In this document: in pieces, positions 19,400 through 40,675 of the stretch | Position numbering within the stretch: the stretch's first letter is position 1 | How the letters are laid out: every line of letters starts with the position of its first letter | Origin: Cinnamomum chago | Taxonomy: Eukaryota > Streptophyta > Magnoliopsida > Laurales > Lauraceae | Reading direction: 5' to 3' | Length of the DNA: 64,000 bases | Assembly: GCA_038049695.1 (NCBI GenBank) | Contig: CP142457.1 | Location: forward strand, 60,074,501 to 60,138,500 | Program-made: the position numbers and the translations under genes | The notes under the pieces: generated by a model | The model's database searches: none | Told to the model about the DNA's origin: nothing | Seen by the model: only the letters and a program-made list of their open reading frames with translations

Positions 19400-19978
19400 A
19401 TGTCATGTTAATCAGCCTTCATTGCTGGGGACGAGTCTGTTTCTACTCTATTATGGTTTTCCATTAGCTACATAAACATTATGTTATGATTCTAGTTAGT
19501 TTGATGATGGATGAATTTTTTTTTTTTTTGTTGTGGTTGTTGTTGTTGTTGGGGGTTATTTGGGTGTTAGGCAATGAGTGTAAATGGGTGGAATTACGTT
19601 TTTAGAGTGTATTTGACTATTTGGAAATGAAGTAAAATATTTGTCACATCTGGGTATGTTGGTTTTAGGAAAGGAGAGGTTACTGAAATAGGCTGATCTG
19701 AACTTTGTTTTCTTTGTATTACTGTTTGGTGTATTGCGTGGCAGAGTGGGGTCTTGTTCCTTGTATTTCAATGGATCCAAACAGAGGACTAATTAAATTC
19801 TCCATTTACTCTCCCTCTCCCTCTCCCTCTCCCTCCACTGTCAGTCCTCTTAAATTCTTCATTAAATGGATCAGGCTAGTGCAGTAGGGCTGAGCTCCTG
19901 CCTCATAAAATTGCTACAGGGTGTACTTCGTCTGCAATTTCTGCCACAAATCAGGCCCCTGCAATTTAAAAACAATAA
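19400..19978. other. Spacer between CASPL gene and the MULE
   Basis: 3' flank of the CASP-like gene with a T-run at 19517-19530, a GTT microsatellite at about 19530-19552, and a CTCCCT repeat at 19810-19833. No gene seen. Confidence 0.5.
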
Positions 19979-20160
19979 GTCTATATGGACAAACTCACTG
20001 GCCCGATTTTGGGCCAGATTCGACGTGGAGGTCCATCTGGCGCTGACCTCAGCAGGAGTTTTTCACCTTATCAAATGGGCGCCAGAATGAAAACAGAAAA
20101 GAGAGGGAAATGGTCTGAGAGGGAGAAACAAAGAAACCTGCAGAGCTCTACGAAAGCTGG
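19979..20160 (+). repeat. Left terminal inverted repeat of the MULE
   Basis: Pairs with 31465-31654. The conserved first 80 bases are followed by a gapped but clear match. Beyond it the left arm runs into a CT microsatellite (20169-20205), a GC dinucleotide run, and a duplicated unit with CAGCGCCTCCCTGCTAAAAT at about 20323 and 20371. Open frames across this arm (19985-20578) are repeat-derived, not genes. Confidence 0.85.
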
Positions 20161-20165
20161 ACTCA

Positions 20166-20218
<53 letters not shown>

Positions 20219-20579
20219 CCCTCTCTTCCGATCAGCAGCTCTCTCTCTGTCTCTCGCTCAACCCTCACTTCCGATCATCAGCTCTCTCTCTGTCTCTCTC
20301 GCGCGACCCTGTCCATCCCATCGCAGCGCCTCCCTGCTAAAATCTCAGCAGGGTCATCTTCCATCCCATTGCAGCGCCTCCCTGCTAAAATCACAGCATC
20401 TCTCTCGCCTCAGGTTTGGTATTTTTTCGAATCCCTCTCTGTTTTTGTTTCCACTTATGGTAAAGAGATTTCCAGCATCTACTATTCTCATCCATTTTTC
20501 ACAATGGAAATGGAAGTTTTACTTTACTTTACTTGTTTCAGGTTTTCTCCTTCTCTTTCATTTCTGGGGAGATTATAGG

Positions 20580-21823
20580 GTTTTTTTTGGGGGGAACCAT
20601 AGATTATTGAACCTGTGCAGGATTAAAATTAGAAACCAGGGTTTTTGTCTTTTGTGTATGCCAGATGTTTGATTGATGGCGTGTTTGGGACCTACCATGA
20701 ATTTGTAGGTGGAATGAAACCCACCTCGTTCTTTATCCAGGGAAGTATCATGAGCAGGGACCAGATTAGATGGGAAACCATTCACCTTTCCCAGCCACAA
20801 CTTTGTATGTGGTAAAGGATTGTTTTGTTTGCCTTTTTGGTATTGGATTCCTAGGAATTCATTGTAAAGGAGGTTTATGGAAGGGGAATCTAGAAAGTGC
20901 ACTGGCAACGTTGAACTACTTGTTAGACTAGTTGTTAGTCTATGGAGGTTGAACTACTTGTTAGACTAGTTGGCGAAATGAGTCTACGTTGGTTTTGGGT
21001 AGTTGTTTTTGTTTTAGTCTAAATCTGTTGCTACCTTGTAGGAATGAATGGGGTTAGAATTGTTGCTTCTTTTTTTTTTTTTTTTTTTTTTGAGTTAGTG
21101 GAAGTACTGGTCAGTTGTAAGCCACCACCTATTTAGAGATGCATGCATTGCTTCCAATAAAAGATACGAGAAAACTTGATCCAAAACGTGCTGGGTTTCC
21201 CTCTATACCCATTTGTCCTTTGTTTTCCCACTTTAAGATGATAGCCCTGTTCTCCAATTTCCATCATAATAGTCCAACAAGGTAAGAAGGGAAAGGCTGC
21301 AGCTCCATAATTCATTTTCAACACCACAATCCTAACAGGTCCATAAAAAATCAAATACGTTAAGAGAAGTACAGCAGAGTAGATGGAATGAAATGCAGGT
21401 ATCATTGTCTTCTTCCAGCAGGAAAGATCCCTTAAAACATTCAGCACCCTCTTTCATTTTGGTGGACTACACCTTTGGATGGTCTCTTGTGTCTTCAGGT
21501 CCATAGGGAGGGTGCATGTGGCATGCAACTCATGTCGTATTGGAGAGACATCTCTACTCTATAGTCTGTTCCTCCGGAAGAAGCATGTCTTGAGGTGGGA
21601 ATTGGGATCCGCCTCTGAGTGCCTGATCTTTCATCTGGGACCACTAATGACAAATATATGAATTAGGAACAGAAAGTTCGAAGCAGGAATGGATGTGTCA
21701 TGCTCTTGGAAGTAAGTAGTTATCCTTTTATTCCTTTTTAATTATGGTTTTTATAATTGTTACAATACCATAGAACTTGTGACTTTTACATCTTCACTTA
21801 CATTCTTATACCCTTTCTTACAG
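20580..21823. other. MULE 5' interior before first firm Ulp1 exon
   Basis: Contains a T-run at 21069-21091 and no confident exon. A short candidate exon (about 21667-21712, ending in CTTGGAA|GTAAGT) would join in frame to the exon at 21824, so the true Ulp1 start probably lies here or further left. Confidence 0.4.
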
Positions 21824-24073
21824 CCTTGGTTTTATGAACATGTTAACCGATTTGAGCCTATTCACCTCAATTCTTATCCACGTTATATGCGATGGGCTAA
21901 GAGTTCGAAATACATGCAAACCAAGTCTTTTAAAGCTATATTGGACAATCTTAGCTATGCAGAGGTATGTATACCTTCACTTTTCTCTATGATTTACTTC
22001 TTGTAGTAATTTATGATATTGACTACAATAAATGAAACAAATACTCTATTTTTTAGGTCATTGAGGAAATCACTCCAACTAAAGAAGAAATGACCTTGTT
22101 ATCTCCCCCAAAAGTCTCTCAGGTATTTTTAACTTATTTTTATTCTTTAATTTAAAGTACTTGGTCATGGTTGCATAGTTGCATCCTTCTTGTCACTTAT
22201 ACTTGTTTTAATTATGGGTTACAGGAGACAACGGCGATGGCTGATTTCATAGTCAGGAGAATGGAGGAACGCATGCCGGATATCATTGTAACTTTAGCCA
22301 TATTTGTTTAAAAGTGGAAAATGCTATTCAAAATCTTTAATATTAACTTCATGTTTTAAATCTATTTTTCACTAACTATATGAAAGTTACATAGGGTGAT
22401 CGCGAGAACTATATAACGAAGATTAAGGATTTGGAGCTAAGGATCACCATATTGGAGGAAGAGAATGAACGATTAAGGAGTGAAAATATGGAGTTGCGAA
22501 ATAGAGGGATCTCGGTGCCTCACTCGCCCGTGGATATTGTGGATGCCTCACTCCATCGTATGGATCATCCTTCTTCTCCAATTCCGTCAATGTCTGGTTG
22601 TGTTGATACTTCAAGAGCCGCCGAGAATATTTCAAAGAAAAATGGGGGTAGAGTTCGGAAGCCATCGCAGATGTTACGGACCCCATATGATGCATGCACA
22701 AAAGCAACTTTGCAAAGAACGAAGAATAAAAAAACTTGCCACAAGAGAGAGAGATTGATTGCGGATGAAATCCACTCAAAGATTGACATTTCGAAAGAAG
22801 AGGAGGATGCAATTGCATGTTTTGAAGCCAAAGTTGGAAAAGAGTATGAACCATTATAAACCTAATCACTTTATACCATAGTACTCACACTAGAAACTCA
22901 CTATTTATATTTATTAATTACTAAATAATAATTTCGCTTTCTTTAGTGCTGAGGAGGTGGGCATGCTAAACATTTGGCGTTCAGAAATCAAGAATTTATT
23001 GGATGAAGTAGGTTGGATATCCGATAAGGTTGGTAGTTAATTTCACATCTTATTATAAGCATTCAATCATGTATACAATTTGAAACCTTGACAACTAACA
23101 CTGAACATGCTATCTTCACTTCTAGATTATTGATTCCTATGCTAAGTTGATGAGTGGGAGAAAGCCAACAGGGAAGATGTCTTCATTGAAATGTTACTTC
23201 TTCACTTCGTGGTTTAATGTAAGTATTCTTCCTAATATTTGTAGTGTTTTTTAATTTTTGAATATTAGTGCTAACATGTAGCTTACTAACTCCCAGACGG
23301 CATTACATTCCAACAATGAAGAGTCAATTAAAAAGCATTTAAATGCGAAGAATTTGAAGTCCATCTTAACCTCGTGGGACAGAATATTTATCCCAATGAA
23401 TTGGGCTTCAAAACACTGGCTTCTCCTTGTACTTGATTCAAACAAGAAGTTGTTTTGTATATACAACTCTTTGAAGTCTTGTGGTGACGTTACATACGTG
23501 AATGAAACGGTGAGTACCCATAATAAGGTATATGCTCCTGTGAAATGTTCAAAATAAACAATGTACTTGTATATAAAACTTAACTGTTATATGGAGATTA
23601 TGCAGGTATCTTTCTTAAAAGAACAATTTGTACAAAGGAAGATTCGTAATTGGGAAAAGGCTGATATTCATTTCGTTGATGATTGCCCTCAACAAGACAA
23701 TGGGTATGTCTCTCTATTAGAGGCTCGTATGAGAAATACAATATCTATTCTAATTGGTATAACAATTAATCTTATATACCCCTTTTTTAACAGTTATGAT
23801 TGTGGCGTCTTCGTGATGAAATTTATGGACTGTCTATCGCGTGGTGATACATTTGATTTCCAGCCGGTAAATACTGTGATTTTTTATAAGCAAATTTACG
23901 TATACAACTCCTTCTCCTTGTTCTAATTTTTTTGTCTGTTTCTTTCATTCCTTCTTTTTTTCTTTCTTTTTTCTTTGTTCTTGGAATAGGATGAAATCAA
24001 GTATTATAGGAGAAAAATAGCAGCACATTTATTGCTTGGTCGAATACCGAATGACAAACATGAAGACTCATAG
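21824..24073 (+). CDS. Ulp1-type (C48) cysteine protease of the MULE, start unresolved
   Basis: SUMO-protease-fold peptidase, related to Ulp1/SENP and commonly carried by plant MULEs. Exons read: 21824-21964, 22057-22122, 22225-22287, 22395-22843, 22947-23028, 23126-23218, 23297-23509, 23606-23703, 23794-23866, 23990-24073; all GT-AG with agreeing phases. The N-terminal part includes a coiled coil (KIKDLELRITILEEENERL, from about 22420). The peptidase spans the last five exons. Catalytic His is in WASKHWLLLVLD, the Gln in DCPQQDNG, and Cys in GYDCGVFVMKF. The usual triad Asp, 17 residues after the His, reads Asn (IYNSLK). The stop TAG at 24071 may be premature, because the frame stays open after it (ADLAEFLMER). 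Activity is uncertain. Confidence 0.85.
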
Positions 24074-24346
24074 GCTGACCTGGCAGAGTTTCTTATGGAA
24101 CGGGTAAAAACAAAAGTGCACGTCTTATTAATATTTCTTCTTTATGGTGTTGGTGATCAAATTAATAATCTCTTACATTTTTATTGTCCGGTGATTTTTT
24201 TTTTTTTGTTTTCTAACATTGATCTCATATTTATTGCAGGTGGTGTACAAAATTTCTTGTATAGAAATATGTGTTCATGTGAGGGAGTTCAAGAGATTCT
24301 GAAACGATGATGTCCTTATTTTGGGATTTCAGAACTTCTTGTGTAG

Positions 24347-24732
24347 GTGGAAACGCTGACAAATCAAGAAGAGGTTGAATTGCGAGCAAAATTAGAAGCA
24401 CTGGGATTAGAGGTCACAGAAGTTCCATCTAAGCCATCTCAGCATCTTGATGAGGTAGTATGATTTCTTTTAATTTTTTTTTCATCTGTAAACATGACTA
24501 AGTAATAACCACTTTATTAGGATAAAATCCTTACATGGTTTTTTTTTTTTTTTGAATGCTTATATAGCTGGAGATAGCCAAGGAGTTGGACAAATTATCT
24601 GCCAGATTAGATGATGTGGATGAGATGATATCTTCGGCCATGGCTGCAGATCCACAGGTGCAGTCTCTCTTGAGTAGCACTGCAGAGCTTTGGATGCCTG
24701 TCATAACTGCAACTTCTGATGAAAGGGCGTAG
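24347..24732 (+). CDS. Two-exon gene-like fragment in the MULE, unknown protein
   Basis: Two exons in one frame, 24347-24454 and 24568-24732 (stop TAG), with a good acceptor (GTGTAG), donor (GAG|GTAGTA) and acceptor (TATATAG). They encode about 90 residues: an acidic, helical segment (EEVELRAKLEALGLEVTEVP), then LEIAKELDKLSARLDDVDEM and AADPQVQSLLSSTAELWMP. The clean amphipathic pattern and codon use look like a conserved host protein's C-terminus. I do not recognise the family. It may be the 3' end of the Ulp1 transcription unit beyond the TAG, or a captured host gene piece with its intron kept. Confidence 0.55.
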
Positions 24733-25094
24733 TTTCATGGTGGCAATTGATGACATTAATGAAATGATAGACTCCAAATGTTTTTTGTTTTTTTTGTTTT
24801 TCTTTAACTTTGATAAATGGAAGTTGTTGTATGAATCAATTATATATGGGGTGAATGAACGAAGAACTTATTTTTGTGTCTGTATAGCATCATTTTATCA
24901 TCTCATTTTGTGAGCACCTAATAGAGTTTGATTTGGCATATTGAATCCTGTGAGATTTTGTCGAAATAGGCCCAAGAGGCAAGTATTCTCGTTGATTCCA
25001 TTTGAAGAGGCCCAAGAGGCAACTATTACAAAGTGATTGATAAATCTAGAATGTTTGCAGAAATGAAGAAATCCTACAATGTGAATGAAATTTC

Positions 25095-26275
25095 GAAGTT
25101 GGGTACCCCTGTTTGGCACAGTTTTTCGCCCACTTCCCGATGGATTTTTTTGCTGAGATTTGGGCATTGCAAATGCAGTACTATGAACCTAAAATCTGCT
25201 AATTTTCGCTTAATTATAAGCACGTTTGCCTATGTTTCAAACCGCGCACTTTTGCAACTCGGCTAAGAAAATCTGCAGGAACCAAGTTGGGTACCCCTGT
25301 TTGGCACACTTTTCCGCCCACTTCCCGAGGCATTTTTTTGCTGAGATTTGGGCACTGAAAAGACCATATTATGGACTTAAAATCTGCTAATTTTCGCTTA
25401 ATTAGAAGCACCTTTGCCCATGTTTCAAACCTCGTACTTTTGCAACTTGGCTGATAAAATCAGCAGGAACCAAGTTGGGTACCCCTGTTCGGCATACTTT
25501 TCCGCCCACTTCCCGAGGGATTTTTTTGCTGAGATTTGGGCATTGAAAAGACCATATTATGAACCTAAAATCTGCTCATTTTCACTTAATTAGGAGCAAC
25601 TTTCCCTACGTTTCAAACCTCGTACTTTTGCAACTCGGCTGATAAAATCTGTAGGAACCAAGTTGGGTACCCCTCTTTGGCACAGTTTTTCGCCCACTTC
25701 ACAAAGTTTTTTTTTCTGATATTTGGGGATTGAAAAGACCATATTATGAACCTCTTATCTGCTATTTTCCACTTAATTAGAAGCACGTTTGCTTGCCGAT
25801 CAAAGTGTGCACTTTTGCTACTCAGTAGCTGGAAAACTGCTGAAAAAGAAGATGAGTACCCCTGTTCGGGGCACTGGTTAACCCGCTTCCCGATGGAGTT
25901 TTTGTCCGAAATTCTGGGCATCAGAAGTCCATAATACAAACTAAGAAACTGCTATTTTCCGGCACGATACGATCACATTTGCCTATTTTTAAAACATCGC
26001 ACTTATGCCACTCAGTAGCTGGAAAACTGCTAAAACATTGCTGAGTACCCCTGTTTGGGGCACTGGTTAACCTGCTTCCCGATGGATTTTTTGTCCGAAA
26101 TTCTGGGCTTCAAGAGTCCATATTACAAACTAAGAAACTGCTATTTTCCGACACGATACGATCACATTTGCCTGCTTTTGAAACGTCGCACGTATGCCAC
26201 TCTGTAGCTGGAAAACTGCTGAAACATTGCTGAGTACCCCTGTTTTTGGCACTGGTTAACCCGCTTGGAAAACTG
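25095..26275. repeat. Tandem array, ~188-bp unit, six and a half copies
   Basis: Units begin near 25095, 25283, 25471, 25660, 25851, 26039 and 26231, each with a variant of GGGTACCCCTGTTTGGCAC. They run through CCCGATGGATTTTTT, TGAGATTTGGGCAT and TTTGCAACTCGGCTGATAAA. The first four copies form one subtype; copies five to seven form a second (GAGTACCCCTGTTTGGGGC, TCAGTAGCTGGAAAACTGC). The last copy is cut short. The array lies between the 3' ends of the convergent Ulp1 and transposase genes. Open frames on it are periodic artefacts. Confidence 0.92.
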
Positions 26276-26800
26276 CTGAGTAAAATCTATTCGATGTAAA
26301 ATCTATGGCAGAGCATATACTGAGGTTTGCTTCGTTATATACTGAGGTTGAGCCTCTGTATGAGGAGGTTGAATGAATAAAATACTGAGGTTTCAGGCTG
26401 GTCGTTTAGGCACTACTTGCACCTCTATTCGATGTAAAATCTATTTAATAGATGGTGAGCGTAGGTCTCACAAAACACATTCTCAGGCCTCAGCTCTGTA
26501 TACTAAGGTTGGTTGAATGAAATACTGAGGTTTCAGTGTTTCGTTAGACTTGACCAACCTGTATTCGATATCAAACCTTGGGGATATGAGAAGGTGTGAC
26601 AGAGAATATTCATAGGTTTTAAAACTGTATGCTGAGGATGTATGCAATAAATACTGAGGTCGAAGTGTTTAATGACCTCTGTATTCGATATAAAATTTTA
26701 AATATATGGCAGAGCATATACTGAGGTTTGCTTCGTTATATACTGAGGTTGAGCCTCTGTATGAGGAGGTTGAATGAATAAAATACTGAGGTTTCAAAAG
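26276..26800. repeat. TACTGAGGT-rich repeat block with exact 92-bp direct repeat
   Basis: Positions 26304-26395 and 26705-26796 are identical over 92 bp (starting TATGGCAGAGCATATACTGA, ending ACTGAGGTTTCA). Between them are diverged sub-units sharing ATACTGAGGT and TATTCGATRTMAAA. The second copy ends 10 bp before the transposase stop codon. A diverged relative occurs at 56550-56730. Confidence 0.88.
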
Positions 26801-26806
26801 CGAAAA

Positions 26807-28519
26807 CTATCGGCAACTGCAATTAGCTTCTCTTGATATCTCATCAAAATGAACACAGAAAGTAAAAGGTCTGATATTGTCTTCTCCTACTATCACATCT
26901 TCCTCCACATCATATTCAAAAAACTCAGCTCCTACCTTAACTGAGGAAATATTGCAACGGATCTTACCTGCTATTTCATTCTGAAACTCCTTAAATTTAG
27001 CAAGAGTATACGCTTGTTGAAATTGCCTCTCAAACTGGTAAGGGGTCACACGTGGAATGTATACATTGAAACAACGGGCATCTTCCTCAGCTTCTAGTTG
27101 CACCTTCTTAGACAAAGCATTATCATACTGCTCAACAAATTGCTTCAATGTGGTCTTGGAATTGATGTAGCCATCAAAAAAAGCATGCATGCTCTCACTA
27201 CGTTGGGTTGTTGACATCCCTGCCCAAAAAATATCTTTCACGAATGCTGGCACCCATCGGGACCTCTCATCGTACAATCCAGCAAGCCAATCGTTGTCTT
27301 CTAGCTGATATGTACTAACCAACTTGGCCCAATTCTCTTCAAACTCCTCTTTTCTCATTGAATCATATACAACATTTAAAAGATGAAATTTAATTGATTC
27401 ATATTCATTATATCCCCTCAATTTTTCAGGCAACTTTTTCAAGATATGCCACAAACACCACCGATGTCGTGCTTTAGGAAATACTATTCCTATTGCATTT
27501 TGCATGGCCTTATCCTGGTCAGTGATTATGGCATTAGGAGGAGACCCATACATGCAATCAAGCCAAGACTGAAACAACCATACAAACGTATCTGTGTCCT
27601 CTCTTGATATCAATCCACAACCTAACAGCACCGATTGTCCATGGTGATTCACACCCACAAAAGGAGCGAAAGGCATATCATATTTATTAACCAAATAAGT
27701 GGTGTCAAATGTGACCACATCACCAAACTCCGCGAATGCTGCTCTACTTCTCGCGTCAGCCCAGAAGATGTTCCTTACTCGATGCTCTAAATCAAGATCC
27801 ATGACATAAAAAAAGGATCCGTTGTCTTGCTGCATTTTTCTGAAATAGCTTAGCATTGCCTCGGCATCCCCTTCCTTGAGTTCTAACCGTCTCAGTTTAT
27901 CCACGTAGTTTCTTGCATCCTTTGCTAACCATGTCAAATTCCCATGCCCCCCTGCCTCTACCACACATGAGCTAACAGTCTTGTTTAATCTAATTCCCGC
28001 TTTCTCATTCAATTCAAGTTGCCTCTTCACGTGTGATGGGATTACCCGATTACTCTTGTGGTAGAGAGCTTTATTCGGACTCATATCATGGTTATGCTCA
28101 AGCATAAATTTGTTCAGAAGCCACTTCCCGTCAAATTGCAAAGAAAGATTTATCGCTGCCTTGCAATTTGTTCTTGATTGTGGACGGGGTTTAATTGGGT
28201 TGCTTGCACTTGGGTTTGGCTTTCTACCCTTAGTGCATCCAATTGTAAGAAACCTCTTTTTTCCATCCAATCCCTTTTTTGAGGTTCGTTGGGCGACAGC
28301 AAACCCGATCTGCCTTGCATATCCTGCATAATATTCATGTACTTCTTCAATTGAACCAAATACCATTCCCCTCTGAGGTTCCATTACTACCTCTTTTAAG
28401 TGTTCACTTTCCTCCAAGGTCTTCTCCATCTCAACACTATTTAATTCATGATAAACCGTCCCCATTTCAATTTCATTGACGTCTCGATCAAATTCACGTG
28501 ATAACCCATCTTCTTCCAT
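26807..28519 (-). CDS. FAR1/MURA-type Mutator transposase, C-terminally truncated
   Basis: MULE transposase, the likely mobility enzyme of the surrounding element; domesticated relatives are FHY3/FAR1. Translation from ATG at 28519 gives 570 residues. This start is chosen because a TTTTTTAG acceptor lies 4 bp upstream (exon from 28523), which puts the longer frame's five extra codons in an intron. Domains: FAR1/WRKY-like zinc region about 54-146 (Cys95, Cys119, His142, His144); MULE catalytic domain with Asp272 (FDTTY), Asp334 (TDQD), C-x2-H at 355-358 (CLWH) and Glu442 (SESMHAFF). It ends at EANCSCR followed by TAG: the first half of the SWIM finger (CxC, 567/569) is present but the CxH half is missing. 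The DDE core is intact; function is doubtful. Confidence 0.9.
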   Translation of the reverse strand: MEEDGLSREFDRDVNEIEMGTVYHELNSVEMEKTLEESEHLKEVVMEPQRGMVFGSIEEVHEYYAGYARQIGFAVAQRTSKKGLDGKKRFLTIGCTKGRKPNPSASNPIKPRPQSRTNCKAAINLSLQFDGKWLLNKFMLEHNHDMSPNKALYHKSNRVIPSHVKRQLELNEKAGIRLNKTVSSCVVEAGGHGNLTWLAKDARNYVDKLRRLELKEGDAEAMLSYFRKMQQDNGSFFYVMDLDLEHRVRNIFWADARSRAAFAEFGDVVTFDTTYLVNKYDMPFAPFVGVNHHGQSVLLGCGLISREDTDTFVWLFQSWLDCMYGSPPNAIITDQDKAMQNAIGIVFPKARHRWCLWHILKKLPEKLRGYNEYESIKFHLLNVVYDSMRKEEFEENWAKLVSTYQLEDNDWLAGLYDERSRWVPAFVKDIFWAGMSTTQRSESMHAFFDGYINSKTTLKQFVEQYDNALSKKVQLEAEEDARCFNVYIPRVTPYQFERQFQQAYTLAKFKEFQNEIAGKIRCNISSVKVGAEFFEYDVEEDVIVGEDNIRPFTFCVHFDEISREANCSCR

Positions 28520-28539
28520 GCTTCTAAAAAACAAACAAA

Positions 28540-31190
28540 ATATTCATGTGTTTAGAATAACTCGATAAAAGAAATGCAAGTATTAAGAAAAATGAAGCAT
28601 CATTTTGCAAATCTAAGCTAGAGCATTCACCTTTTGTTCTTTTTCATTAACAACATAACTTGAGCCTACGTATCATTCATACCCAACCATAGAGAGTATG
28701 TGGGAGCTAGAGAGAGAGAGAGCCAAACCAAATCATTTATAGCCCTCCAAATGGCCCAATAGAGAGCTAGAACTCATGATTTAGAGAGGGTCATTGAGAT
28801 ATGGACCAACATTAGAGAGCTAGCCCGGCCTCCAAATTGTAATATGATTTACGCTTTGTACACTAAGGAAAACAATATGATCCAAGCTTTGTGGACTGTC
28901 AAAATTAACTCAAATCTTCAATTGAGTACACACATGAATATAAATCTAGGAAAACCAGAACTGAACAGTTACCTTCATTTTAGGTCTCAATGTTATCCAA
29001 TATGAACAAGTAAAAACTAAAAACAATGATTCAACCAATCTAATGAGATTTTGATGAGGAAATCGTGCTAGACTGACCAACTGGAAAACTACCCATAGTT
29101 TTATGCAGATTTCAAAATCCACAATCCTTGGATTGAATGTCAAAAGAAATTTATAATTAAAATACCACTAATTGTGTTACTTTACTCCACCCTACAAACA
29201 AACAATACCTACAGAGAAATGTTCATTCTCCCCACCTCACCTTCCTATAAGAAATGTCAAAAAGACTGAGGAAACCAGTCTGTGATGGACGGCTAGGATG
29301 GAGTACAGTTAGTATGATGTGCACGTTGCATGGAACATGGATCAGCTCATCCTCAACATCACAACCAACTATACATCAATACTTGAGGAGGCACCAATGC
29401 ATCATGCATCCTACTAATTGAGGAACTTGGTATAATTTTATAATGATCAGATAGATTTTGTAGATTGATCTCTCTGCCTCTCAAAAGTCATTGCCACCTT
29501 CTCTTCTCGATCACACTATAGGTTAGTCATGAACTTGGGCCCCACGTGATCATTTGTGCTGTACTATTTTTTTAAAAATCTTTATCATCTGCATATAACA
29601 ATAATTCATTAAGGTCAACGTATTCTTACAATGTCAAGACTTAAGAATGTTTTGTAGAGCATATCAACATTAGGATGCAATTTTTGGGTGTGCTTTTTCT
29701 CTGTTTTTATTTGAAATGGGGTGAAGTGCATGGGCACATTAGATTAAAACGTTTGAATCATAGAATTATGGAGGGACTCATTATGTGTTTATAAGCATGA
29801 CGGTTTACAGAATATGGAAGTGAGTGAATAGAACAATGCCATAGGGACACCTTTCGGATTGAAAGACCATGACTATTTATACCTCCGGAATAAAAATTTA
29901 GAAATTAGAACCATAGTTTTTTTTTCTTGGTATCGGAGGGTTCCCAACCCTTTGGGCTGGACTAATTCCTCCGGGCCCAGAGGGAAGCCGGGTAAACTCC
30001 CCTATAATCCAGTGTGGTAGTGCAGTTTTGAACCTACTCTTGTAAATCAAAATATATTGTGTGTGTATATGACGGGTTTTACTTGAGAAAATAAATGGTT
30101 CAGCTCCGGTGCCAATTCAGCGGAGCTTTTCTCCTGAATTCAGGGCTAGCTAAAAGAGTTTTAGTCCGAAACTCTACACAGAGCTACAATGATCCAAAGT
30201 TAGAAATGGCCAAATGGTTCCTTAAAATTTGAGTAGGAGAGAATCTCCTAAATGGAATTTAATGTCTGACCTTATGACTTACAACTAGAAATAAATTTTA
30301 AAACAAGTGATGAACGCAACAATATGAGATGGAGGAAATTGAATTGCTTTGATATTCCATTTTCATATATTTGTGATATAATATAAACAGTGAGAACAAT
30401 TGGTTGGATTGTTGGACAAAAAGTCTATATGGACCGAATCTCCAATCGTGCTAGACTGGCCAATTGAAAAACTACCCACAGTTTTTTACAGATTTCAGAA
30501 TCCACAATCCAGCCATGTAAATCTCACAGTGGGTCCCACCTTATGAAATCTTCCATGGTCAGAACTCAACCACTTTTACAACACAGTTTGCTCACTCACT
30601 TTAGATATTTGCATTGCCTAAGAATAATCAATGTGAGAGATTTGGTAGTTTACCCAAAGCTAATCTCTATCTTTAACAGAATGAAATTTCAAATTGTAAT
30701 CCACACTCACTGTGAGATACTCACCAATGACAATAATTTCCAACTACTTACTAAATCTTTGTAACCAAACCCATCTCAAATAGCCCATCTCCATAACAAA
30801 AAAAGAAAGAAATTCAACTTTTGGGACAGATGCCCAAAACTACAAATGGAAAAGGGAAAAGTGCTGTAACTGAACCCATCTCAAATAGCCAATCTCCATA
30901 ACCAAAAAAAAAAATCCAACTTTTGGGACAGATGCCCAAAACTTCAAATGGAAAAGGGAAAAGTGCATTGAGAAAGATTATTTCTTCAAACAATACAATA
31001 CAAATCAAACCCATCTCAGAATTCCAAGATTGAAGTGGTGTTTGCATTCATCATCATGAATGCAAATGAAGGGTGGAGTGGAACTGTCGTGTTATAAGTG
31101 TAATAAATTTGAAAGAGATACTATGCCTGCAACAGATTTATATCATTAAAAAAAAATGAAAGGGACAGAATATACAATGCTGTCATTTTT
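28540..31190. other. MULE interior upstream of the transposase
   Basis: Probable 5' region of the transposase gene with internal duplications. A ~75-bp unit (CGTGCTAGACTGRCCAAYTG ... TCCACAATCC) occurs at 29063-29127 and 30445-30510. A ~105-bp unit (AACCCATCTCAAATAGCC ... AAATGGAAAAGGGAAAAGTG) is tandemly duplicated at 30769-30964. At 30424 GTCTATATGGACC repeats the tip motif of the terminal repeat. No other gene was recognised. Confidence 0.6.
29917..30045 (-). mobile_element. SINE copy 3, inside the MULE
   Basis: Inverted copy: T-run at 29917-29925, then the reverse complement of the family 3' domain (GGTTCCCAACCCTTTGGGCT, GAAGCCGGGTAAACTCCCCT) and a degraded B-box-like GTTTTGAACCTACTC. 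No clear target duplication was seen. Its presence inside the MULE shows the MULE has been resident long enough to receive insertions. Confidence 0.75.
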
Positions 31191-31464
31191 TTTTACTTCC
31201 TAAGACCTTTGAGGACCAATTGCATTTGATGTCGCAAGAGAAACATGAATGTGCTTACCAGGTTACTGTCGTGGAGAGAGAGAGCGAGAGAGAGAGACTG
31301 CAGTGCTCGAGAGAGGGAGGGAGATGAGATCCAGTCGCTCGACTGTCGCGGAGAGAGAGAGCTAGAGAGAGAGACTGCCGTGCTCGAAAGAGGGATGGAG
31401 ATTCGATGCAGGCGGGCGATGAGGAGGGAGGATCGTCTGTGGAAGGGAGAAACCCAGAGGTCTG

Positions 31465-31654
31465 CAGGTTTCCTCTGTTTCTCACTCTCAGACCGTTTCC
31501 CCCCTTTTTCTGTTTTCATTCCTTCATTTTGGCGCCCATTTGATGAAGTGAAAAGAGAAAGTCCATGTGGACACTTCCTGCTGAGGTCAGCGCCAGTTGG
31601 ACCTCCACGTCGGTTCTGGCCCAAAATCGGGCCAGTGAGTTTGTCCATATAGAC
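31465..31654 (-). repeat. Right terminal inverted repeat of the MULE
   Basis: Reverse complement of 19979 onward. Inward of it (31265-31440) are two copies of a GA-rich unit with CTCGAGAGAGGGAGGGAGAT and CTCGAAAGAGGGATGGAGAT. The left arm is also CT-rich at the matching place, so both subterminal regions are low-complexity and tandemly repeated. Confidence 0.85.
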
Positions 31655-31659
31655 GGATT

Positions 31660-32949
31660 GTTTGTAGATTATGAAGGGTATTTTTGTAAGTAGAGGTTGC
31701 GTGGTGTTGGGTTGGGTGCACTTGACCCACACCATCCGCGTGGTTGAAATGCTCCCATCAGATGACCCGAGGGTCTACTCGTTTCGTTTGGGATGAGTTT
31801 TGTCAAATTTCAATGGAGTATTTTGTATATACCTCCTTTAAGATTTATATTATTTGTAAAATAAACCCTTATTGTTAGAGTATTTCACGATACATCCATG
31901 CTTTTGCATTTTAATACCTTCATGTCCCTAAATTCAGAAGTCCAACCACCATGTCCCTAAATTTATAAGAAAAGTATCATTTCACTTTTAAAACTTACAA
32001 TAGTGGAAATGTCACTTATTTCCTAAATATATAAGGTATTAAAAAGAGAAAAAGTCAGAATTTATTACTAAATACTAAAACCTCATAAGTTCTTTTTACA
32101 AATCTTAAAAATCTAAAAAATCCAAATTATTTTAAAAATTATCTACTTCAAATTCTCTACATGCAAGAGAGATAAAAAACTTATTCGATATTCAAAAGAT
32201 CTAAAAAGCTAAAAATAACATTATTTATTATGCTCAATAAAAATTCTCTACATCGATTATGGGATCCTGAATTTCTACTACAAACTAATTGTTAGATTTA
32301 GAGGGTGAAAATGTTAGAACTGTCAAAACAAGAACTCCACTTTTTTTTCATGAAAAAAAAAATAATGAATGTTTTGATTTAAACTGAGAAATTAATTTAT
32401 CTAGATAAATCTAATGAGACCCATATGATGAAGAATAAGTGATTAAATTGAGAATATATGGAGTTAATATAATGAGAATAAAAAATATTTAATCTAAAAT
32501 TAAAAAAAAAGAAACACTAAAGACACTACTATCCACCAATCTACTAAGATGACTAGGATAAGTCTAGCCAACTTTATTGCTTAGGGGCATTTTGTATGTA
32601 CTCATCAAAGGGAGGAACTTGACAGTATTTGAAAGAAATCTAAAAAATTCCAAAGTTTTTTTTATTATTAATTTACAAAGTACTTTTTTGATATTAGTTT
32701 GAAACATAGTTACTGTTTCAAAAATCTCCCAAAATCATTGAATACGCTGTGACCGACCTTGCAAGGAAAGAGAAAGATAAATATTCTTTCCCCTCAGCTT
32801 CCTTTCTCTCCATCTCTTTGAAAATCTGATCGAAGACTCCAAGAAGGGGAAAAAAAAAGAGACAAAACCCTAGTTTCTGGTTTTCATTCCATCAATTAAT
32901 CTCCATTTGCTATATTCCCGATCGATAGATTTCTCAATTCGATCCGCTC
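31660..32949. other. AT-rich spacer and promoter region of the FLOE gene
   Basis: Strongly AT-rich with no gene or clear repeat. The final 200 bp before 32950 becomes pyrimidine-rich (TTCCTTTCTCTCCATCTC) and is the probable leader of the next gene. Confidence 0.5.
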
Positions 32950-35900
32950 ATGGCCTCTGGATCATCCGGTCGAAACTCCTCCGGATCGAAAGCTTTCGAT
33001 TTCGGCTCTGACGACGTTATCTGCTCCATCGACGACTTCAGTAGTCAAGATGCCTCCAATGGAAGGCGAATGGATTCTACCATCAATACCAGTTCTGGAA
33101 TGGTATTCATCAATTGTTTTCTGTTTTTATTCTTTCTGTTCCAGTGTTCGATTTCGTCTTCTTTTTGTGCTTTCTTGTATTTGGGGATCGTCTGTTTTTC
33201 TATTGATCTAAAGATATCCTGAACAGTCGAGAATTGGTCTGAATTAGATGACCTAGAGCTTTGGAATTTGTAAATTTGATGAACTTCGCTGCAGATCTGT
33301 TCTGCGCGATGTAGGAATTTTTTATTTTTGAAAAGGAAGCTTTTTGTTTGGTGAGGCGATCATGATTTTGCTTTATACGCTGAATCATGAAAGCTGGTTC
33401 CTTTTTTTTTTTTTTTTAAATTCTATATGGTCTTCTGTGGCGTTGAATTTCAGCAAGTATATGTAATGAGATTTGGTAATTGAGCTTCATGATCATGACT
33501 TCTTGAAAGCTTTCTTGTCCTTGCAATTGGGTTTTTTATTTTTTATTTTTTCTTGATGAGAAAGTCTAGGGCGTTTTTCAATGGTGATCAGAGACTGAAA
33601 GATTATAACTTTCCAAAAAAAAAAAAAATATTATCCTTGCAATTTTGTTCTCTTTTTTTCTTGATTAGAAAGTCTGGGGGTTTTGCAATGGTGATCAGAG
33701 ACTGAAAGATTATAACCTTTTTCACCACACCCACACCCACACCCACACCCACACCCACAAAAAAAAAAAAAAAAAAAATCTTTGGAAGATCACATGGCTC
33801 ATTTTACTTCTTAGGTTACAGAGAAGAAGTCCTTATGAGAGTTGAATTTTGAATAAATGATTTGGAGATTGCTCGATTGCAATAACATGAATGAAGTGCG
33901 AATTTGGGTGCTTTGGCATTAGGCATGTGAGCTATGCATTTTATAAGCATATATTTCTACTAGCGTTTAGTACTAACTTTAGTATAATATATGCATTTAA
34001 GTATGTGTTTCATTTTAGTAGTATCTATTGAATGATTTAAAATTCTCTAACTGAGCAGGACTACCGGGAGAGCAGGCTGGGTAGATCATTGGTAAATGCT
34101 TATAATAAGCAAGAAGACTCTTTCCACCAGGAAGTGCTTGCCACTGTTGAAAAGACCATGAAGAAGTATGCTGACACTATACTGCGATCCCTTGAGGGGA
34201 TCAGCAGCCGGCTGTCCCAGTTGGAATTATACTGCTACAATGTTGAGCAATCAATCGGAGACCTTCGATCTGATTTAACTCGTGATCATGGTGAAGCAGA
34301 TGTGAAGCTCAGATCTCTTGAGAAGCATCTTAAAGAAGTGAGTTTGTCTCTGTATCATAACAGATCTTATTCTGTTACCTCCTACTAATAGAAAATCTTC
34401 AGTCATGTTTAGATAATTTGTGGGTTTTTGGAACCACTCTTTTTATTTGATGAATTTAAATATTTTAACCTTTGATCAATTGTGTTTAGTAGAAAGTGAA
34501 CATTCAGTTACTACTGCATCTATGATCAGTGAATATCAACGATTAGGGTTGGTGAAAAGTGGGTCTTACTGTAATGGGATTAGCCTTGCTAGCATCATAG
34601 AAGTAATACTTTTTCTATATAGTGGTATCAAAATAATGCTACTAATCATTGTGGGACGGGATTCTTGTGACACTGGCCATACATGATAGCAGTCAGTGTA
34701 TCATATAGACAATTGGCTTGCATCAACATATTTAAAATGTGCACCTAATTTAGTCGTACTGTTTGGGCTTTGATCGCTCATGTAGCGTTGCATACTGCCA
34801 CATCGTTGCAACAAGGCTCTTGGGCCACATGTGGGTCCTATGAAATTCTGATTTTTAATTGTTGTTAGTTTTAATTTTATCAAAGGGTGTAATTAGGATT
34901 AGTTTCTAATTTTGATAGGATTCTTATTTTGTTTCGTAGTTTGATTAGGAATGTTTCTTAGGGCTTAAGTTTCTTTTATTATAAATATGGCATTGTAAAG
35001 ATCCATGATCTCAGATTTTGGAATTAATAGAATTTTCCCTTTTGTGTGTTTTGTCGTTGGAGCGTGTCTTTATCGAGTGATTGTTTTTGTGGAAAACCTA
35101 ACTGTCCCTCGGCACTTGCGATCCTAACCCTAGGATTGCATCACATACTTGCATCTCTACATTTTACTGCCTTTTTCAGATTATTTTAAATTTGACAATA
35201 TATAGCATTTTTCATGATCTTTTTGTATATATCTTATGTCATTGATTTAAGATTTGTGTGGCTTCTCGTCATTTAAGGATTTGAGATATTTTCTTCCCAT
35301 AATCTCTAAATGAAGGAATTTTTTTTCTCCTATTCAAAATGTCATACAGCCTTGGACAATATTATGTAAATACGCCTCTCTGCCTAAATAGGGGAGCTCA
35401 AAATTGCAATAAGCAGGGGGGGGGGGGGGGGGGTGGGGTGCAGGGGGGGGGGGGGGGGGGGGGGGGGGGGGTGGGGTGGGGTGGGGGGGGGTGGGGGGTA
35501 AATTATGGTATATTTGAAAAGTGAGGAAAGAACGGGTGTTTCGAAGCAAAGAGAATCTCGTCTGAAGCTCAACAAAGAACTATATAGGCATTGTAGCAAG
35601 CTGGCGGTTTTATTTTATTTTAAGAAAGGAGTTTAGAGGCATTAGTTGGTCTTATTTTGTACCCAGTTGTCAAACGAGCCCGTAATGAAGACCCAAACCT
35701 GACTCTTTTGTTTGGGCCCTTCTGTTTGTTGGCTAAATGACCGCGGATGGCCATATTACTTGTTACGGTGAAGTGTTGGGTAACAGACCCAAGGTCCCCC
35801 ATGGGTCAACCCGCCAATAGGCCAAACCCATCCATCTCGACCAGTTCTTTGGCCCAGCCCACCTACATGCCTATTTTATTTTATTTAGGGTGTTTATTGC

Positions 35901-38358
35901 TTATGTTTTAAGTTATTTATGTTGATATTTAAATCTTGGCTGTTGATGTGTTTAGATGGCCAGGATTAGTTTCGGTGTTTTTCCCTCTTCTTATATAATG
36001 CATTGTAATGCCTCTTTGGCAATTAGACTATGATTAATAGAAAAAAAATGACTGATTTTGGGGTTTTTCGAGTTCATTCTTCTTCCTTAACCGTGATGGG
36101 GAGCTTGGTGGCGAGGTCAATTTTTAGGCGAAAGCTTGATGTATCCCTTCCACCTTCCATCTCTAGCCGCCTCACACCTGGTATCCCGCTCCGCATCAAA
36201 GGAGCTGACAAGAATGCATGTATATGAGGCTAACAGTTTTTTTTTTGGAAATGCATGTGGTATAGTGAAAATTTTGGGTTTAACCCTTAGCCCACCAAAA
36301 AAAAACCCAAAAAAGAAAAAAAAAAACCCACCACACAAAAAAAAAAGAAAAAGAAGAGTAGTAGTAGCAGTATCTTTTCCATAGAATCGCAAAAAAGCTG
36401 GCTTATTTTTGTGCTTTTCCTTTTGGAGAAGTGACTGCGCCAAAAATAGATTTTACTATACTAGAAAAGAGTTTCTGCAAGCAATTCTTACTTTTTTCTA
36501 CAGAAAATTGGCTGCACAAATGGGCTCATATTTAGTGCGACTTTTCTTATTAAAGTATTAACGCGATGCCCGTATTCGAATCCATGTCCTTCATTTCACA
36601 AAGTTCAGAATCATGTGTGTGCTCTCGGTATATATATTAATATCCATTTTTGTATTTAGGCATCATGGGTGATGACAAAGGTGAGTTTTAGGAATTATAA
36701 TTTGTAATGGAGAGGAGGGAAGTAGTATCATAGATGAAATGAGAGGACCCGCCTTCACACCTTGAGGCAGGCTTGTTCTTGGCATGGTTACTATTCAGGC
36801 CTATATTTCCAGGCCTTTGCCTGACCCACTGCCACTGGCCCACGCTAGGCGCAGCTGGTTCAATCATAGACCACTGTGTTATTCTAAAATAACTTTCTAT
36901 CCTTTTAATCCCTTGTAATGTTGGATGCAATCTTCTTTACTTTTCAGAAGTTTCTGTTTTATCATAAAATTATCTTGCCAAACTTTCTGGACTGTGAATA
37001 TGGGAAATTGGTAAAGCGTTTTTGTGCTTGCGGTACAGGTCCACAGGTCTGTACAAATCCTGAGAGACAAACAAGAACTTTCTGATACTCAGAAGGAACT
37101 GGAGAAGCTTCAACTTGTGAAGGAGTTGAAGGAGGCTGCTGCTAAGAGCCATTCTCAGCAGCAGGATGATGGAGTTGCGTCATCCGCCTCTGAGTCGAAA
37201 AAACACGACAACTCCCCAGATATGCAGAACCAGCAGTTGGCTCTTGCTTTGCCCCACCAGACAACTTTACCAGCCTCACTTCCAGCTAGAGCTGTTGAAC
37301 CACAGCATACACCCTACAAGGAATTGCAGTCAGGTCTCACGTCTTTGCCCTTGCAACCGACAATACATGCTCCACAGCCAGCTCTCCCCTCTCTGCCGCA
37401 ACAGCAGACTATGCATGTTCAGCATCCAGCTCTTGCCTCACTGCCACCTCAACAGGCTGTTCATGTTCCGTCCCAACCAAATATGTACTATTCCCAGCAG
37501 ATGCAACTGCCAAATCAGCCGCCCCAGAGCCAACAACATCCTCAAGATCAGCACTTGCAAGCTGCCGAACTCCAATATGGCCAACAGAGGGCCCAATTGC
37601 AGGATCTGTCTAGGCAGGCAGCCCAACCTCCTCATGTAAATCAGACCCAAGCTCACCCATTTCCCCCATATCAGCAGCAGTGGCCTCAGCAGTTTCCTCA
37701 AGAAGCGCAACTGCAACCCCAGGCTCCATCTTCACATGCTCAAATAAAACCCCAAACAACACCAGTTTACCCACCTTACCCACACCAACCCACAAATGCA
37801 TCACCTGAGACATATCCTGGTAGCATGCCGATGCAAGTTCCATTCTCTGGAGCTCCCCAGTCTGGTGTAAGCCGTCCTGAAGCTGTGGTTTATGGTTATG
37901 GAGGGTCAGGTAGAACTGTCCAGCCTCAGCCGCCACAGCATAATATGCAGCGGCAACCACAGCTGCAGACTAATCAAAGTTCTTTTGGTTCCAATCTTGG
38001 AGACAGTGGCTATCCAAGTGCTGGGCCCCGCCCCACTCATTCTTCAATGCATGGTTACATGATGTATGACACAGATGGCAGCAGGCAGCCCCATCCACCA
38101 CCCTTCCAGCAAGGGAGTAGCTACACTCCCAACCATGCCTCTGCTCTCCAGAATCAGCAGGCACCTCCTGGTGCTGTTGTGGGCCGGCATCCAAATTCAC
38201 AGATAATGCGCAACCATCCATACAGTGAGATGATTGAGAAAGCTGCTAGCATGGGCTATCCAAGGGACCAAGTTGCAAGCGTGATCCACAGGATGGAGGA
38301 GAGTGGCCAACCTGTGGATTTCAATAATCTACTGGACAGGTTGAATGCACGATTCTGA
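32950..38358 (+). CDS. FLOE1: FLOE-family prion-like protein (DUF1421)
   Basis: Plant protein of the DUF1421 family; the Arabidopsis founder FLOE1 forms hydration-dependent condensates in seeds (established knowledge). Exons: 32950-33102, 34059-34337, 37039-38358, all phase 0, giving 583 residues. Order: Asp/Ser-rich head (GSSGRNSSGSKAFDFGSDD), coiled-coil segment across exons 2-3 (SLEGISSRLSQLELYCYNVE; DTQKELEKLQLVKELKEAAA), a long Gln/Pro/Ser/His-rich disordered region (about residues 175-525), and a C-terminal DUF1421 domain (HPYSEMIEKAASMGYPRDQV, DFNNLLDRLNARF). This three-part layout matches FLOE proteins; which paralogue (FLOE1, 2 or 3) is not settled. Neighbours are unrelated. Confidence 0.9.
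33726..33778 (+). repeat. CACACC microsatellite plus A-run in FLOE intron 1
   Basis: About six CACACC-type hexamer units (33726-33759) are followed by an A-run to 33778. Just before it, the text CAATGGTGATCAGAGACTG with GAAAGATTATAAC occurs twice (33580 and 33687), a small intronic duplication. Confidence 0.85.
34690..35140 (+). repeat. Possible LTR-like remnant in FLOE intron 2
   Basis: Contains TATA-like TTATTATAAATATGGCATTG followed by AATTAATAGAATTTTCCC and a stretch ending CTAGGATTGCATCA, the kind of promoter/polyadenylation order seen in plant LTRs. No target duplication or internal domain was found, so this is tentative. Confidence 0.3.
35416..35510 (+). repeat. Poly-G tract of about 95 bp in FLOE intron 2
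   Basis: Almost unbroken G with a few T and CA interruptions. Open frames coding poly-Gly or poly-Pro on it are artefacts. Assembly errors are likely in such a tract, and G-quadruplex formation is possible. Confidence 0.9.
35774..36235 (+). repeat. Possible solo LTR in FLOE intron 2
   Basis: Starts TGTTGGGTAACAGACCC, a common LTR opening. It has TTCTTATATAATGCATTG as a TATA-like box and AATTAGACTATGATTAATAG downstream. The 3' boundary and target duplication are not resolved. Confidence 0.35.
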
Positions 38359-40234: not shown

Positions 40235-40622
40235 AAAATAAAAGTCACATTGCCCATCTACAATGGGATCAACCATCCAGATCTCTCGGGCACGTTTATG
40301 TTTGCTTTATTAACGGGCACAATGCTATAGCTTAGCCGGTGAGGAACATGAGTGTTCAAGCCTGACACCCCATTATCTAGAGAAGAAAAAAGTCAAATCA
40401 GTGAAAAATGTGATGGTTAAGTAAGGTAAGTTTTTGTTTCACGTAAAGCAGAATTTGTGTTAAAAGTAATTTGAGAGGGGTAAAATTCTTTGGCACCTTA
40501 TAAAATAAAAACTAAAGTGTCTGGCATAACTGAATTTTCACTCATCGTGAGAGAGAGAGAGAGAGAGAGCTCCTTATAAAATAAAAACTAAAGTGTCTGG
40601 CATAACTGAATTTTCACTCATC

Positions 40623-40675
<53 letters not shown>
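40235..40675 (+). repeat. Right direct repeat and GA microsatellite
   Basis: Second copy of the repeat at 39275-39620. Its end is itself duplicated in tandem: CTCCTTATAAAATAAAAAC ... CACTCATCGTGAGAG occurs twice (about 40495-40570 and 40571-40630), the second running into a pure GA run to 40672. Confidence 0.85.

What the first reader, a model, noticed from the sequence alone, without database searches (positions are those of the whole stretch)
19979..31654. Large MULE pairing an Ulp1 protease gene with a FAR1-type transposase
Long inverted ends (19979 onward and 31654 backward) enclose two convergent genes, an Ulp1/C48 protease (+) and a FAR1/MURA transposase (-), separated by tandem arrays. 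Ulp1-carrying MULEs are known in plants. What is unusual here is finding the ends, both genes, introns and organised repeats all readable in one copy, with both genes pointing at the array. The organisation and the role of the protease in transposition are poorly understood. The lack of a visible 9-11 bp target duplication means the exact tips are not settled.
Basis: partly seen in the sequence, partly recalled or inferred. Interest (0 to 1): 0.75.

Follow-up and report, generated by a model that had tools for sequence, protein, structure and literature searches.

The report
Crippled MULE with exchangeable protease-array cassette
This stretch is a broken copy of a large plant jumping gene; its longer relatives pair the enzyme that moves the element with a second conserved protein and a mirrored repeat array, and nearly the same protein-plus-array package also sits beside a very different moving enzyme, which hints at a portable helper, perhaps one that resists host silencing.

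Summary
The inverted ends, the convergent Ulp1 and FAR1/MULE genes and the arrays are real. The tips lie 6 bp further out (19973 and 31660; 11,688 bp). It is not a complete element: against 20-26 kb relatives in the same genome it has two internal deletions. One removed most of the first plant-mobile-domain (PMD) exon of the Ulp1 gene, the other the transposase SWIM finger and half of a palindromic array. It has no target duplication; some relatives have 9-bp ones. What is new lies in the family. The accessory gene is PMD-Ulp1, under purifying selection (dN/dS 0.3-0.4), with Asn for the catalytic Asp. The 25 of 33 Ulp1 loci with a detected transposase within 25 kb are all convergent with it. 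Almost the same gene and its ~400-bp array also sit beside a second FAR1-type transposase only 32% identical to the first. That array follows the accessory gene, with one remnant as exception; a 188-bp array goes with the first transposase. The array's most conserved core resembles the VANC21 anti-silencing motif. I read it as a VANC-like anti-silencing cassette shared between MULE families: identity well supported, mechanism inferred.

The parts
   Evidence: copies elsewhere share from 19973 inward
31456..31660 (-). right terminal inverted repeat; tip CAATCCGTCTATATGG read on the minus strand
21688..21693 (.). deletion junction 1: about 2.25 kb present here in the two C9 copies (4.6 kb in C4:77M) is missing, including nearly all of the first PMD exon; only its last few codons remain
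21824..21964 (+). second part of the PMD region of the Ulp1 gene
   Evidence: PF10536 0.00079, below its cut-off; exon ends by eye
22395..22856 (+). open frame holding the coiled-coil / basic exon of the Ulp1 gene
   Evidence: only sub-threshold coiled-coil families; open frame
23297..23509 (+). C48 exon carrying the catalytic His (HWLLLV) and Asn (YNSL) where SENP1 has Asp
23606..23703 (+). C48 exon with the Gln preceding the catalytic Cys (QQDNG)
23794..23866 (+). C48 exon with the catalytic Cys (YDCG)
23990..24073 (+). last C48 exon, ending at TAG; exon ends by eye
   Evidence: in L010 the downstream frame likewise begins after a stop
25096..26266 (+). 188/189-bp tandem array, about six units; seen beside transposase A, not in family B apart from one 60-bp match
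26299..26796 (+). ~400-bp array unit with ~130-bp subrepeats carrying ATACTGAGGT in one orientation (8 copies, none elsewhere in the window); goes with the PMD-Ulp1 gene
26797..26803 (.). deletion junction 2: about 6.2 kb relative to C9:38M (rest of the palindromic array plus the transposase 3' end) missing; the size depends on which array unit is matched
26807..28519 (-). truncated transposase A: FAR1 + MULE core, stops at CSCR, SWIM finger and C-terminus lost

Best explanation
SHOWN: 19973-31660 is an internally deleted member of a FAR1-type (Jittery-like) MULE family whose longer copies run 20 kb or more: TIR, PMD-Ulp1 gene (+), palindrome of tandem arrays, FAR1-MULE-SWIM transposase (-), TIR. 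INFERRED: the transposase moves the element. The PMD-Ulp1 protein is a separate helper that recognises the ~400-bp array units through a short repeated motif (ATACTGAGGT) and counteracts silencing of the element, as VANC does in Arabidopsis VANDALs. Helper and array travel together as a cassette that has joined at least two different transposases. This copy can do neither by itself; it could at most be mobilised in trans through its ends.
For: Deletions and lost domains. PMD in 12 of 12 copies scanned (12 of 20 in hand). Purifying selection: PMD exon dN/dS 0.37 (0.25-0.56, 20 copies), C48 0.30 (0.17-0.51, 22 close copies). Fixed architecture: 18 of 18 C48 loci with a detected transposase A within 25 kb are convergent, and 7 of 7 with transposase B. 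Cassette sharing: nearly the same gene, 96.8% identical over 1374 bases to the nearest fully read family-A copy, beside a transposase 32% identical. Gene-array coupling: among 46 TpA loci, listed arrays lie near 11 of 18 with C48/PMD and 0 of 28 without; in stretches read directly the ~400-bp array is in 9 of 9 loci with the gene and 1 of 5 without. Motif core: most conserved 10-bp window over 260 subunits; its reverse complement is an 8-of-9 match to VANC21's YAGTATTAY. Precedent: VANC binds motif arrays in non-coding tandem repeats (PMC5735166, passages); anti-silencing use of MULE-borne PMDs was speculated on by Ikeda et al. (PMC5418596, passages).
Against: No methylation, expression or binding data. 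DUF1985, the VANC domain, scores below cut-off (best 0.0014, 9 of 12 members), and DUF287 did not appear in the exons scanned. An 8-of-9 motif match occurs somewhere in 21% of shuffled units; only its coincidence with the most conserved window is unusual (P about 0.011, simple base shuffles). One transposase-A locus without a detected gene, L025, keeps 155 bp (two subunits) of the ~400-bp array. The array listing scored 40 of 93 candidates, was cut off and favours close matches: it misses L027 and L028, which have arrays, shows arrays near only 3 of 8 transposase-B loci, and 21 of its 39 clusters have no detected gene near. Transposase searches scored few candidates (75 of 2857; 58 of 2525). 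The right end of the family-B element at C9:8.6M was not found in the fetched stretch, so its link to the family-B ends rests on its left side. Low dN/dS could reflect a protease role alone. The two 20-kb C9 copies carry a stop in a C48 exon, so which copy, if any, is active is unknown. 8 of 33 C48 loci have no detected transposase.
Confidence: 0.45

Rival explanations
1. The accessory protein works as a protease: a SUMO/ubiquitin-like protease that edits host silencing factors or the transposase, and the arrays are irrelevant to it.
For: C48 homology to SENP1/Ulp1 over nearly the whole domain; the His is kept in 25 of 25 copies and Gln and Cys in most, and C48 dN/dS is about 0.3.
Against: The catalytic Asp is Asn in all 25 copies read (a papain-like Cys-His-Asn triad could still work, recalled). 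It does not explain why the ~400-bp array goes with the gene across two transposase families.
Confidence: 0.25
2. The Ulp1 gene is a captured host fragment (transduplication) carried as a passenger.
For: MULEs often capture genes, and Benjak et al. (passages of PMC2528002) interpret ULP in MULEs as repeated transduplication or, alternatively, frequent loss.
Against: dN/dS well below 1 in 20-22 copies, fixed convergent layout in 25 of 25 loci with a detected transposase, multi-domain PMD-Ulp1 structure with introns, and inheritance through two transposase families.
Confidence: 0.12
3. The palindromic arrays are recombination products or terminators; convergent transcription through them makes hairpin or double-stranded RNA, and the gene-array link is only physical linkage during exchange.
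For: Arms of 2.1 kb at 98.4% identity about 0.95 kb apart in the C9 copies, and 3.1 kb at 92.8% in C4:77M. The block shared between families, about 6.4 kb (1.6 kb of it not fetched), contains gene and array together.
Against: The motif core is kept at 0.95 while the subunit averages 0.78. Array-bearing, largely palindromic elements without full genes have perfect 9-bp duplications, so they moved.
Confidence: 0.18

Closest known systems
Jittery-like MULEs with a ULP region in grapevine (PMC2528002, passages; families Jitvine-1 11.9 kb and Jitvine-2 14.4 kb are listed, the text says some Jittery-like families carry ULP without the passages saying which) and in melon (van Leeuwen 2007, seen only as cited there)
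   Same: transposase distant from MuDR, ULP downstream of the transposase, elements over 10 kb
   Different: no PMD, no palindromic array and no exchange of the gene between transposase families appear in the passages read; whether those ULP genes carry a PMD was not checked
Kaonashi / KIU VANDAL elements of Arabidopsis (seen as described in PMC13317346 and PMC2528002, passages; Hoen 2006 not looked up, Sasaki 2022 not held)
   Same: ULP gene in reverse orientation to the transposase; Ulp1 joined to a VANC-type gene; anti-silencing of motif-bearing copies
   Different: non-TIR, with mudrA there; here about 200-bp TIRs and a FAR1-type transposase
VANC / VANDAL21 and VANDAL6 anti-silencing (PMC5735166 and PMC10398659, passages)
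   Same: accessory gene, non-coding tandem repeats carrying a short motif in one orientation, motif similar to VANC21's
   Different: PMD rather than a clear DUF1985, Ulp1 added, arrays in mirrored arms, function untested
PMD-carrying MULEs of grasses and Amborella (PMC5418596, passages)
   Same: plant mobile domain inside a MULE
   Different: there PMD is fused to the transposase; here it is in a separate convergent gene with Ulp1

Membership tests
MULE superfamily | MULE-type transposase domain | tested here: met
   PF10551 5.3e-36
MULE superfamily | long terminal inverted repeats (common, not universal) | tested here: met
MULE superfamily | 9-11 bp target duplication at this copy | tested here: not met
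   4 of 9. Family-A relatives: 2 of 8 perfect 9 bp, 1 perfect 10 bp by inspection; family B 2 of 2 perfect
FAR1/Jittery-type MULE | FAR1 + MULE + SWIM in the transposase | tested here: met
   met in relatives L011 and L014; this copy lacks SWIM
FAR1/Jittery-type MULE | grouping with Jittery in a transposase tree | not tested
   no Jittery sequence was on hand; the label rests on the domain set as given in PMC2528002
Kaonashi/KIU VANDAL | non-TIR ends | tested here: not met
Kaonashi/KIU VANDAL | ULP gene reversed relative to the transposase | tested here: met
   25 of 25 loci with a detected transposase
VANC anti-silencing protein | DUF1985 domain | tested here: inconclusive
   9 of 12 members, best 0.0014; member 1 scores 13.9 bits against a cut-off of 35.1; PMD is the clear hit
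VANC anti-silencing protein | DUF287 domain | tested here: inconclusive
   no hit at E up to 1 in the exons scanned; the full spliced protein was not scanned
VANC anti-silencing protein | binds its motif array and removes methylation | not testable with these tools
   needs binding assays and bisulfite data
C48 / Ulp1 peptidase | C48 domain homology | tested here: met
C48 / Ulp1 peptidase | complete His-Asp-Cys triad | tested here: not met
   Asp is Asn in 25 of 25 copies; His kept in 25 of 25, Cys in most

The most novel reading that the evidence does not exclude
A self-contained anti-silencing cassette, PMD-Ulp1 protein plus its cognate motif array, is a selfish module of its own: it is exchanged between MULE families whose transposases share only a third of their residues, and it supports swarms of gene-poor palindromic elements that keep the array.
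Probability: 0.3. Interest if true: 0.82.

Novelty: new variant of a known kind. Interest (0 to 1): 0.55.

Why it matters
Ulp1 genes recur in plant MULEs, and their role there is described as unknown (PMC13317346, passages). Here one genome offers two transposase families sharing one accessory gene and one array, relatives in which neither was found, and gene-poor elements that keep the array. That is a natural set of controls which makes the roles of the protein and of the array separately testable. If the VANC-like reading holds, anti-silencing reaches FAR1-type MULEs and can spread as a module.

Tried and rejected
Rejected: that this copy is a complete element (deletions). Considered: that the transposase simply has a last intron beyond the array. 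The reading frame in relatives runs straight on through CSCR into the SWIM finger, so it is a deletion. Considered: that the copy arose by recombination between two elements. Its Ulp1 half groups with C11:22.4M (support 0.79) while its transposase is closest to C9:38M (98% against 96%), and it lacks a target duplication. This is suggestive, not settled.

Led nowhere: VANC6 motifs do not match the array (best 5 and 6 of 8). Sasaki et al. 2022 (EMBO J) is not held. No plant collection other than the window's own genome was available, so distribution in other species could not be tested.

Rows dropped and capped lists: searches scored only part of their candidates (40 of 74, 75 of 2857, 40 of 93, 150 of 980, 58 of 2525); one search scored 60 of 60. 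In one search the 67 transposase loci, 38 PMD loci and 33 C48 loci are merged from the listings; PMD hits of about 22-29% identity and many short fragments were left out. In one search only the 19 better transposase-B places were used, and one C48 copy (L087) was left out of the tree. In one search I used 46 transposase-A loci, leaving out distant or short ones, 8 transposase-B loci, and 39 array clusters merged by hand from a listing that was itself cut off. In one search I gave 12 of the 20 PMD exon copies (those without stops, less one identical duplicate). My first direct array comparison left out L025 and L026; one search added them, which gave 9 of 9 with the gene (L026 keeps a 275-bp remnant) and 1 of 5 without (L025, 155 bp). 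For L024 and L027 the gene lies just outside the fetched stretch and is known. For the three sister loci only 5 kb downstream of the transposase was read. Codons with stops or gaps were skipped in the dN/dS counts, and copies are related, so none of the counts are independent events.
Full report
What is there. The window lies in a 1.06-Gb, 14-contig genome, to judge from its gene content and elements a plant's, at C7:60074501-60138500. Inverted arms at 19963-20066 and 31567-31670 are 89% complementary and continue inward, with gaps, to about 20149 and 31456. A search of the same genome with 201 bases of the left end gave 40 matches (40 of 74 candidates scored). With flanks fetched, the copies share CAATAA, CAATCC, CAGTAA or CAGAAA (CAAAAA in L029, CAATCT in L034) outside GTCTATATGG and then diverge, so the tips are 19973 and 31660, not 19979 and 31654. 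The window copy has no duplication there (ATTTAAAAA against TTTGTAGAT). Of eight other family-A elements with both ends, C9:38M and L022 have perfect 9-bp duplications, L021 8 of 9, C9:10.6M and L009 7 of 9, L020 a perfect 10 bp by inspection (5 of 9 at the 9-bp offset), and C4:77M and L019 none (3 of 9 each).

The copy is broken twice. C9:38M is 20,342 bp between its tips (495-20836 of the joined stretch). Relative to it the window lacks about 2.25 kb at 21688/21693 and about 6.2 kb at 26797/26803; C9:10.6M and C4:77M also have extra sequence at both places. The first missing stretch holds a 270-aa open frame with the Pfam plant mobile domain (7.9e-12), whose last codons lead into the window's Ulp1 gene. 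The second contains the transposase C-terminus: relatives read on through CSCR to a SWIM finger (PF04434, 7.6e-8 in L011; 769-aa open frame in L014), while the window stops at CSCR.

The family's layout. The longer copies read TIR, PMD-Ulp1 gene (+), tandem arrays (+), spacer, the same arrays (-), transposase (-), TIR. The inverted array arms are 2.1 kb at 98.4% in the two C9 copies, 3.1 kb at 92.8% in C4:77M and 1.5 kb at 87.5% in L024; L028 showed none within the fetched stretch. The window keeps one arm. From capped listings I merged 67 transposase-A loci, 38 PMD loci and 33 C48 loci. 31 of 38 PMD loci have a C48 exon on the same strand within 8 kb; 19 of the 67 transposase loci have C48 or PMD within 25 kb; and all 18 C48 loci with transposase A within 25 kb are convergent with it (copies are related, so these are not independent events).

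A second transposase with the same cassette. C9:8.56-8.58M carries the PMD-Ulp1 gene and inverted ~400-bp arrays, but its convergent transposase (768 aa, FAR1 + MULE + SWIM) is only 32% identical to transposase A over 631 aligned positions. Searching the genome with it places it beside 7 of the 15 C48 loci that lacked transposase A, all 7 convergent; 8 of 33 remain without either. The accessory gene of the young family-B group is 96.8% identical over 1374 bases to the family-A copy at C3:7.2M. In a FastTree of 25 loci that group (support 1.000) lies among family-A copies, a 0.990 split dividing it and some family-A copies from other family-A copies, while B_C4_79.8 sits elsewhere. The accessory gene therefore has a history different from the transposase; exchange between families, at least once, is the simplest account. 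Homology between the family-B element and family A spans about 6.4 kb including gene and array, of which 1.6 kb was not fetched. The right end of the C9:8.6M element was not found in the fetched stretch. Two largely palindromic elements with family-B ends and no full gene seen have perfect 9-bp duplications: C1:120680711-120689780 (9,070 bp, ACTTATAAA) and C5:6830915-6836551 (5,637 bp, AATGAATTT).

Which array belongs to what. Read directly, the ~400-bp unit is present in 9 of 9 loci with the PMD-Ulp1 gene (both families, window included; in L026 only a 275-bp remnant). Among five transposase-A loci where no such gene was found it is absent from four, which carry 188-bp units instead, and L025 keeps a 155-bp remnant (three of the five seen for 5 kb downstream only). 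Family-B stretches lack the 188-bp unit apart from one 60-bp match in C5:6.83M. On a wider but capped listing, arrays lie near 11 of 18 transposase-A loci with C48 or PMD and 0 of 28 without (Fisher 2.4e-6, copies not independent), near 3 of 8 transposase-B loci, and 21 of 39 array clusters have no detected gene near. That listing misses arrays known from L027 and L028, so its zeros are soft. In 260 subunits from 17 fetched pieces (several from one element) the most conserved 10-bp window is AAATACTGAG (0.95 against a mean of 0.78), and ATACTGAGGT occurs 8 times in the window's array and nowhere else in the window. Its reverse complement CAGTATTTC matches VANC21's YAGTATTAY at 8 of 9; such a match occurs somewhere in 21% of shuffled units, but in the top window in 1.1%.

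The accessory protein. PMD is found in 12 of 12 copies scanned; DUF1985, the VANC domain, appears below its cut-off in 9 of 12 (best 0.0014). dN/dS is 0.37 (0.25-0.56) for the PMD exon in 20 copies and 0.30 (0.17-0.51) for C48 in 22 close copies; nine transposase-A copies give 0.44 (0.32-0.60). The C48 domain aligns with SENP1 and yeast Ulp1 (7e-16 and 3.8e-15), with Asn at the catalytic Asp in 25 of 25 copies. Individual copies have stops: of 20 PMD exons 7 have one or more, and the two C9 copies carry one in a C48 exon, the window none there.

How it probably works, and what is known. ULP genes in MuDR-like and some Jittery-like MULEs, in both orientations, are described for grapevine (PMC2528002, passages) and cited there for melon, rice and Arabidopsis. 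VANC proteins bind short motifs in non-coding tandem repeats and remove methylation (PMC5735166, passages; PMC10398659, passages). A 2026 review (PMC13317346, passages) says KIU, the Ulp1-bearing VANC, acts likewise and that the function of Ulp1 there is unknown. Ikeda et al. (PMC5418596, passages) found PMDs fused to MULE transposases and speculated on anti-silencing. I found no paper in the held library with both 'plant mobile domain' and 'Ulp1' (0 papers); this does not cover abbreviations or papers not held. On this evidence I read PMD-Ulp1 plus the ~400-bp array as a VANC-like anti-silencing cassette. Steps shown: structure, selection, gene-array association, sharing between families. Steps inferred: binding, demethylation, benefit in trans to deleted copies such as this one.

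One search was added; it brought in L025 (an exception) and L026, and showed that L022 keeps 128 bp of the transposase.

Noticed in passing
L050+L047+L051 (C1:120680711-120689780) and L048+L046+L049 (C5:6830915-6836551): Largely palindromic MULE-like elements without a full gene seen, built from mirrored array halves, with perfect 9-bp duplications; 21 of 39 array clusters in the capped listing had no detected gene nearby.
   Followed up: partly
L009 (C1:90610317-90612692): A 1.4-kb derivative made of about 400-bp ends and little more than one array unit.
   Followed up: partly
L025 (C2:7283461-7293460): A transposase-A locus with a remnant of the ~400-bp array but no PMD-Ulp1 gene found; perhaps a deleted copy.
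   Followed up: partly
G000, listing: Dozens of PMD matches at about 22-29% identity, mostly with 255-aa open frames, a separate and numerous group, perhaps retrotransposon-borne PMDs (guess).
   Followed up: no
window 33-620 +: End of an RNA polymerase Rpb2-type gene (domains 6 and 7).
   Followed up: no
window 37015-38355 +: 447-aa glutamine/proline-rich frame ending in a DUF1421 UBA-like domain.
   Followed up: no
window 45397-46317 -: 307-aa frame that by recall resembles a SOSEKI protein C-terminus; no Pfam hit at 0.001.
   Followed up: no
window 35416-35498 and 40496-40673: An 83-bp run of mostly G, and a perfect 76-bp tandem duplication running into a GA microsatellite.
   Followed up: no
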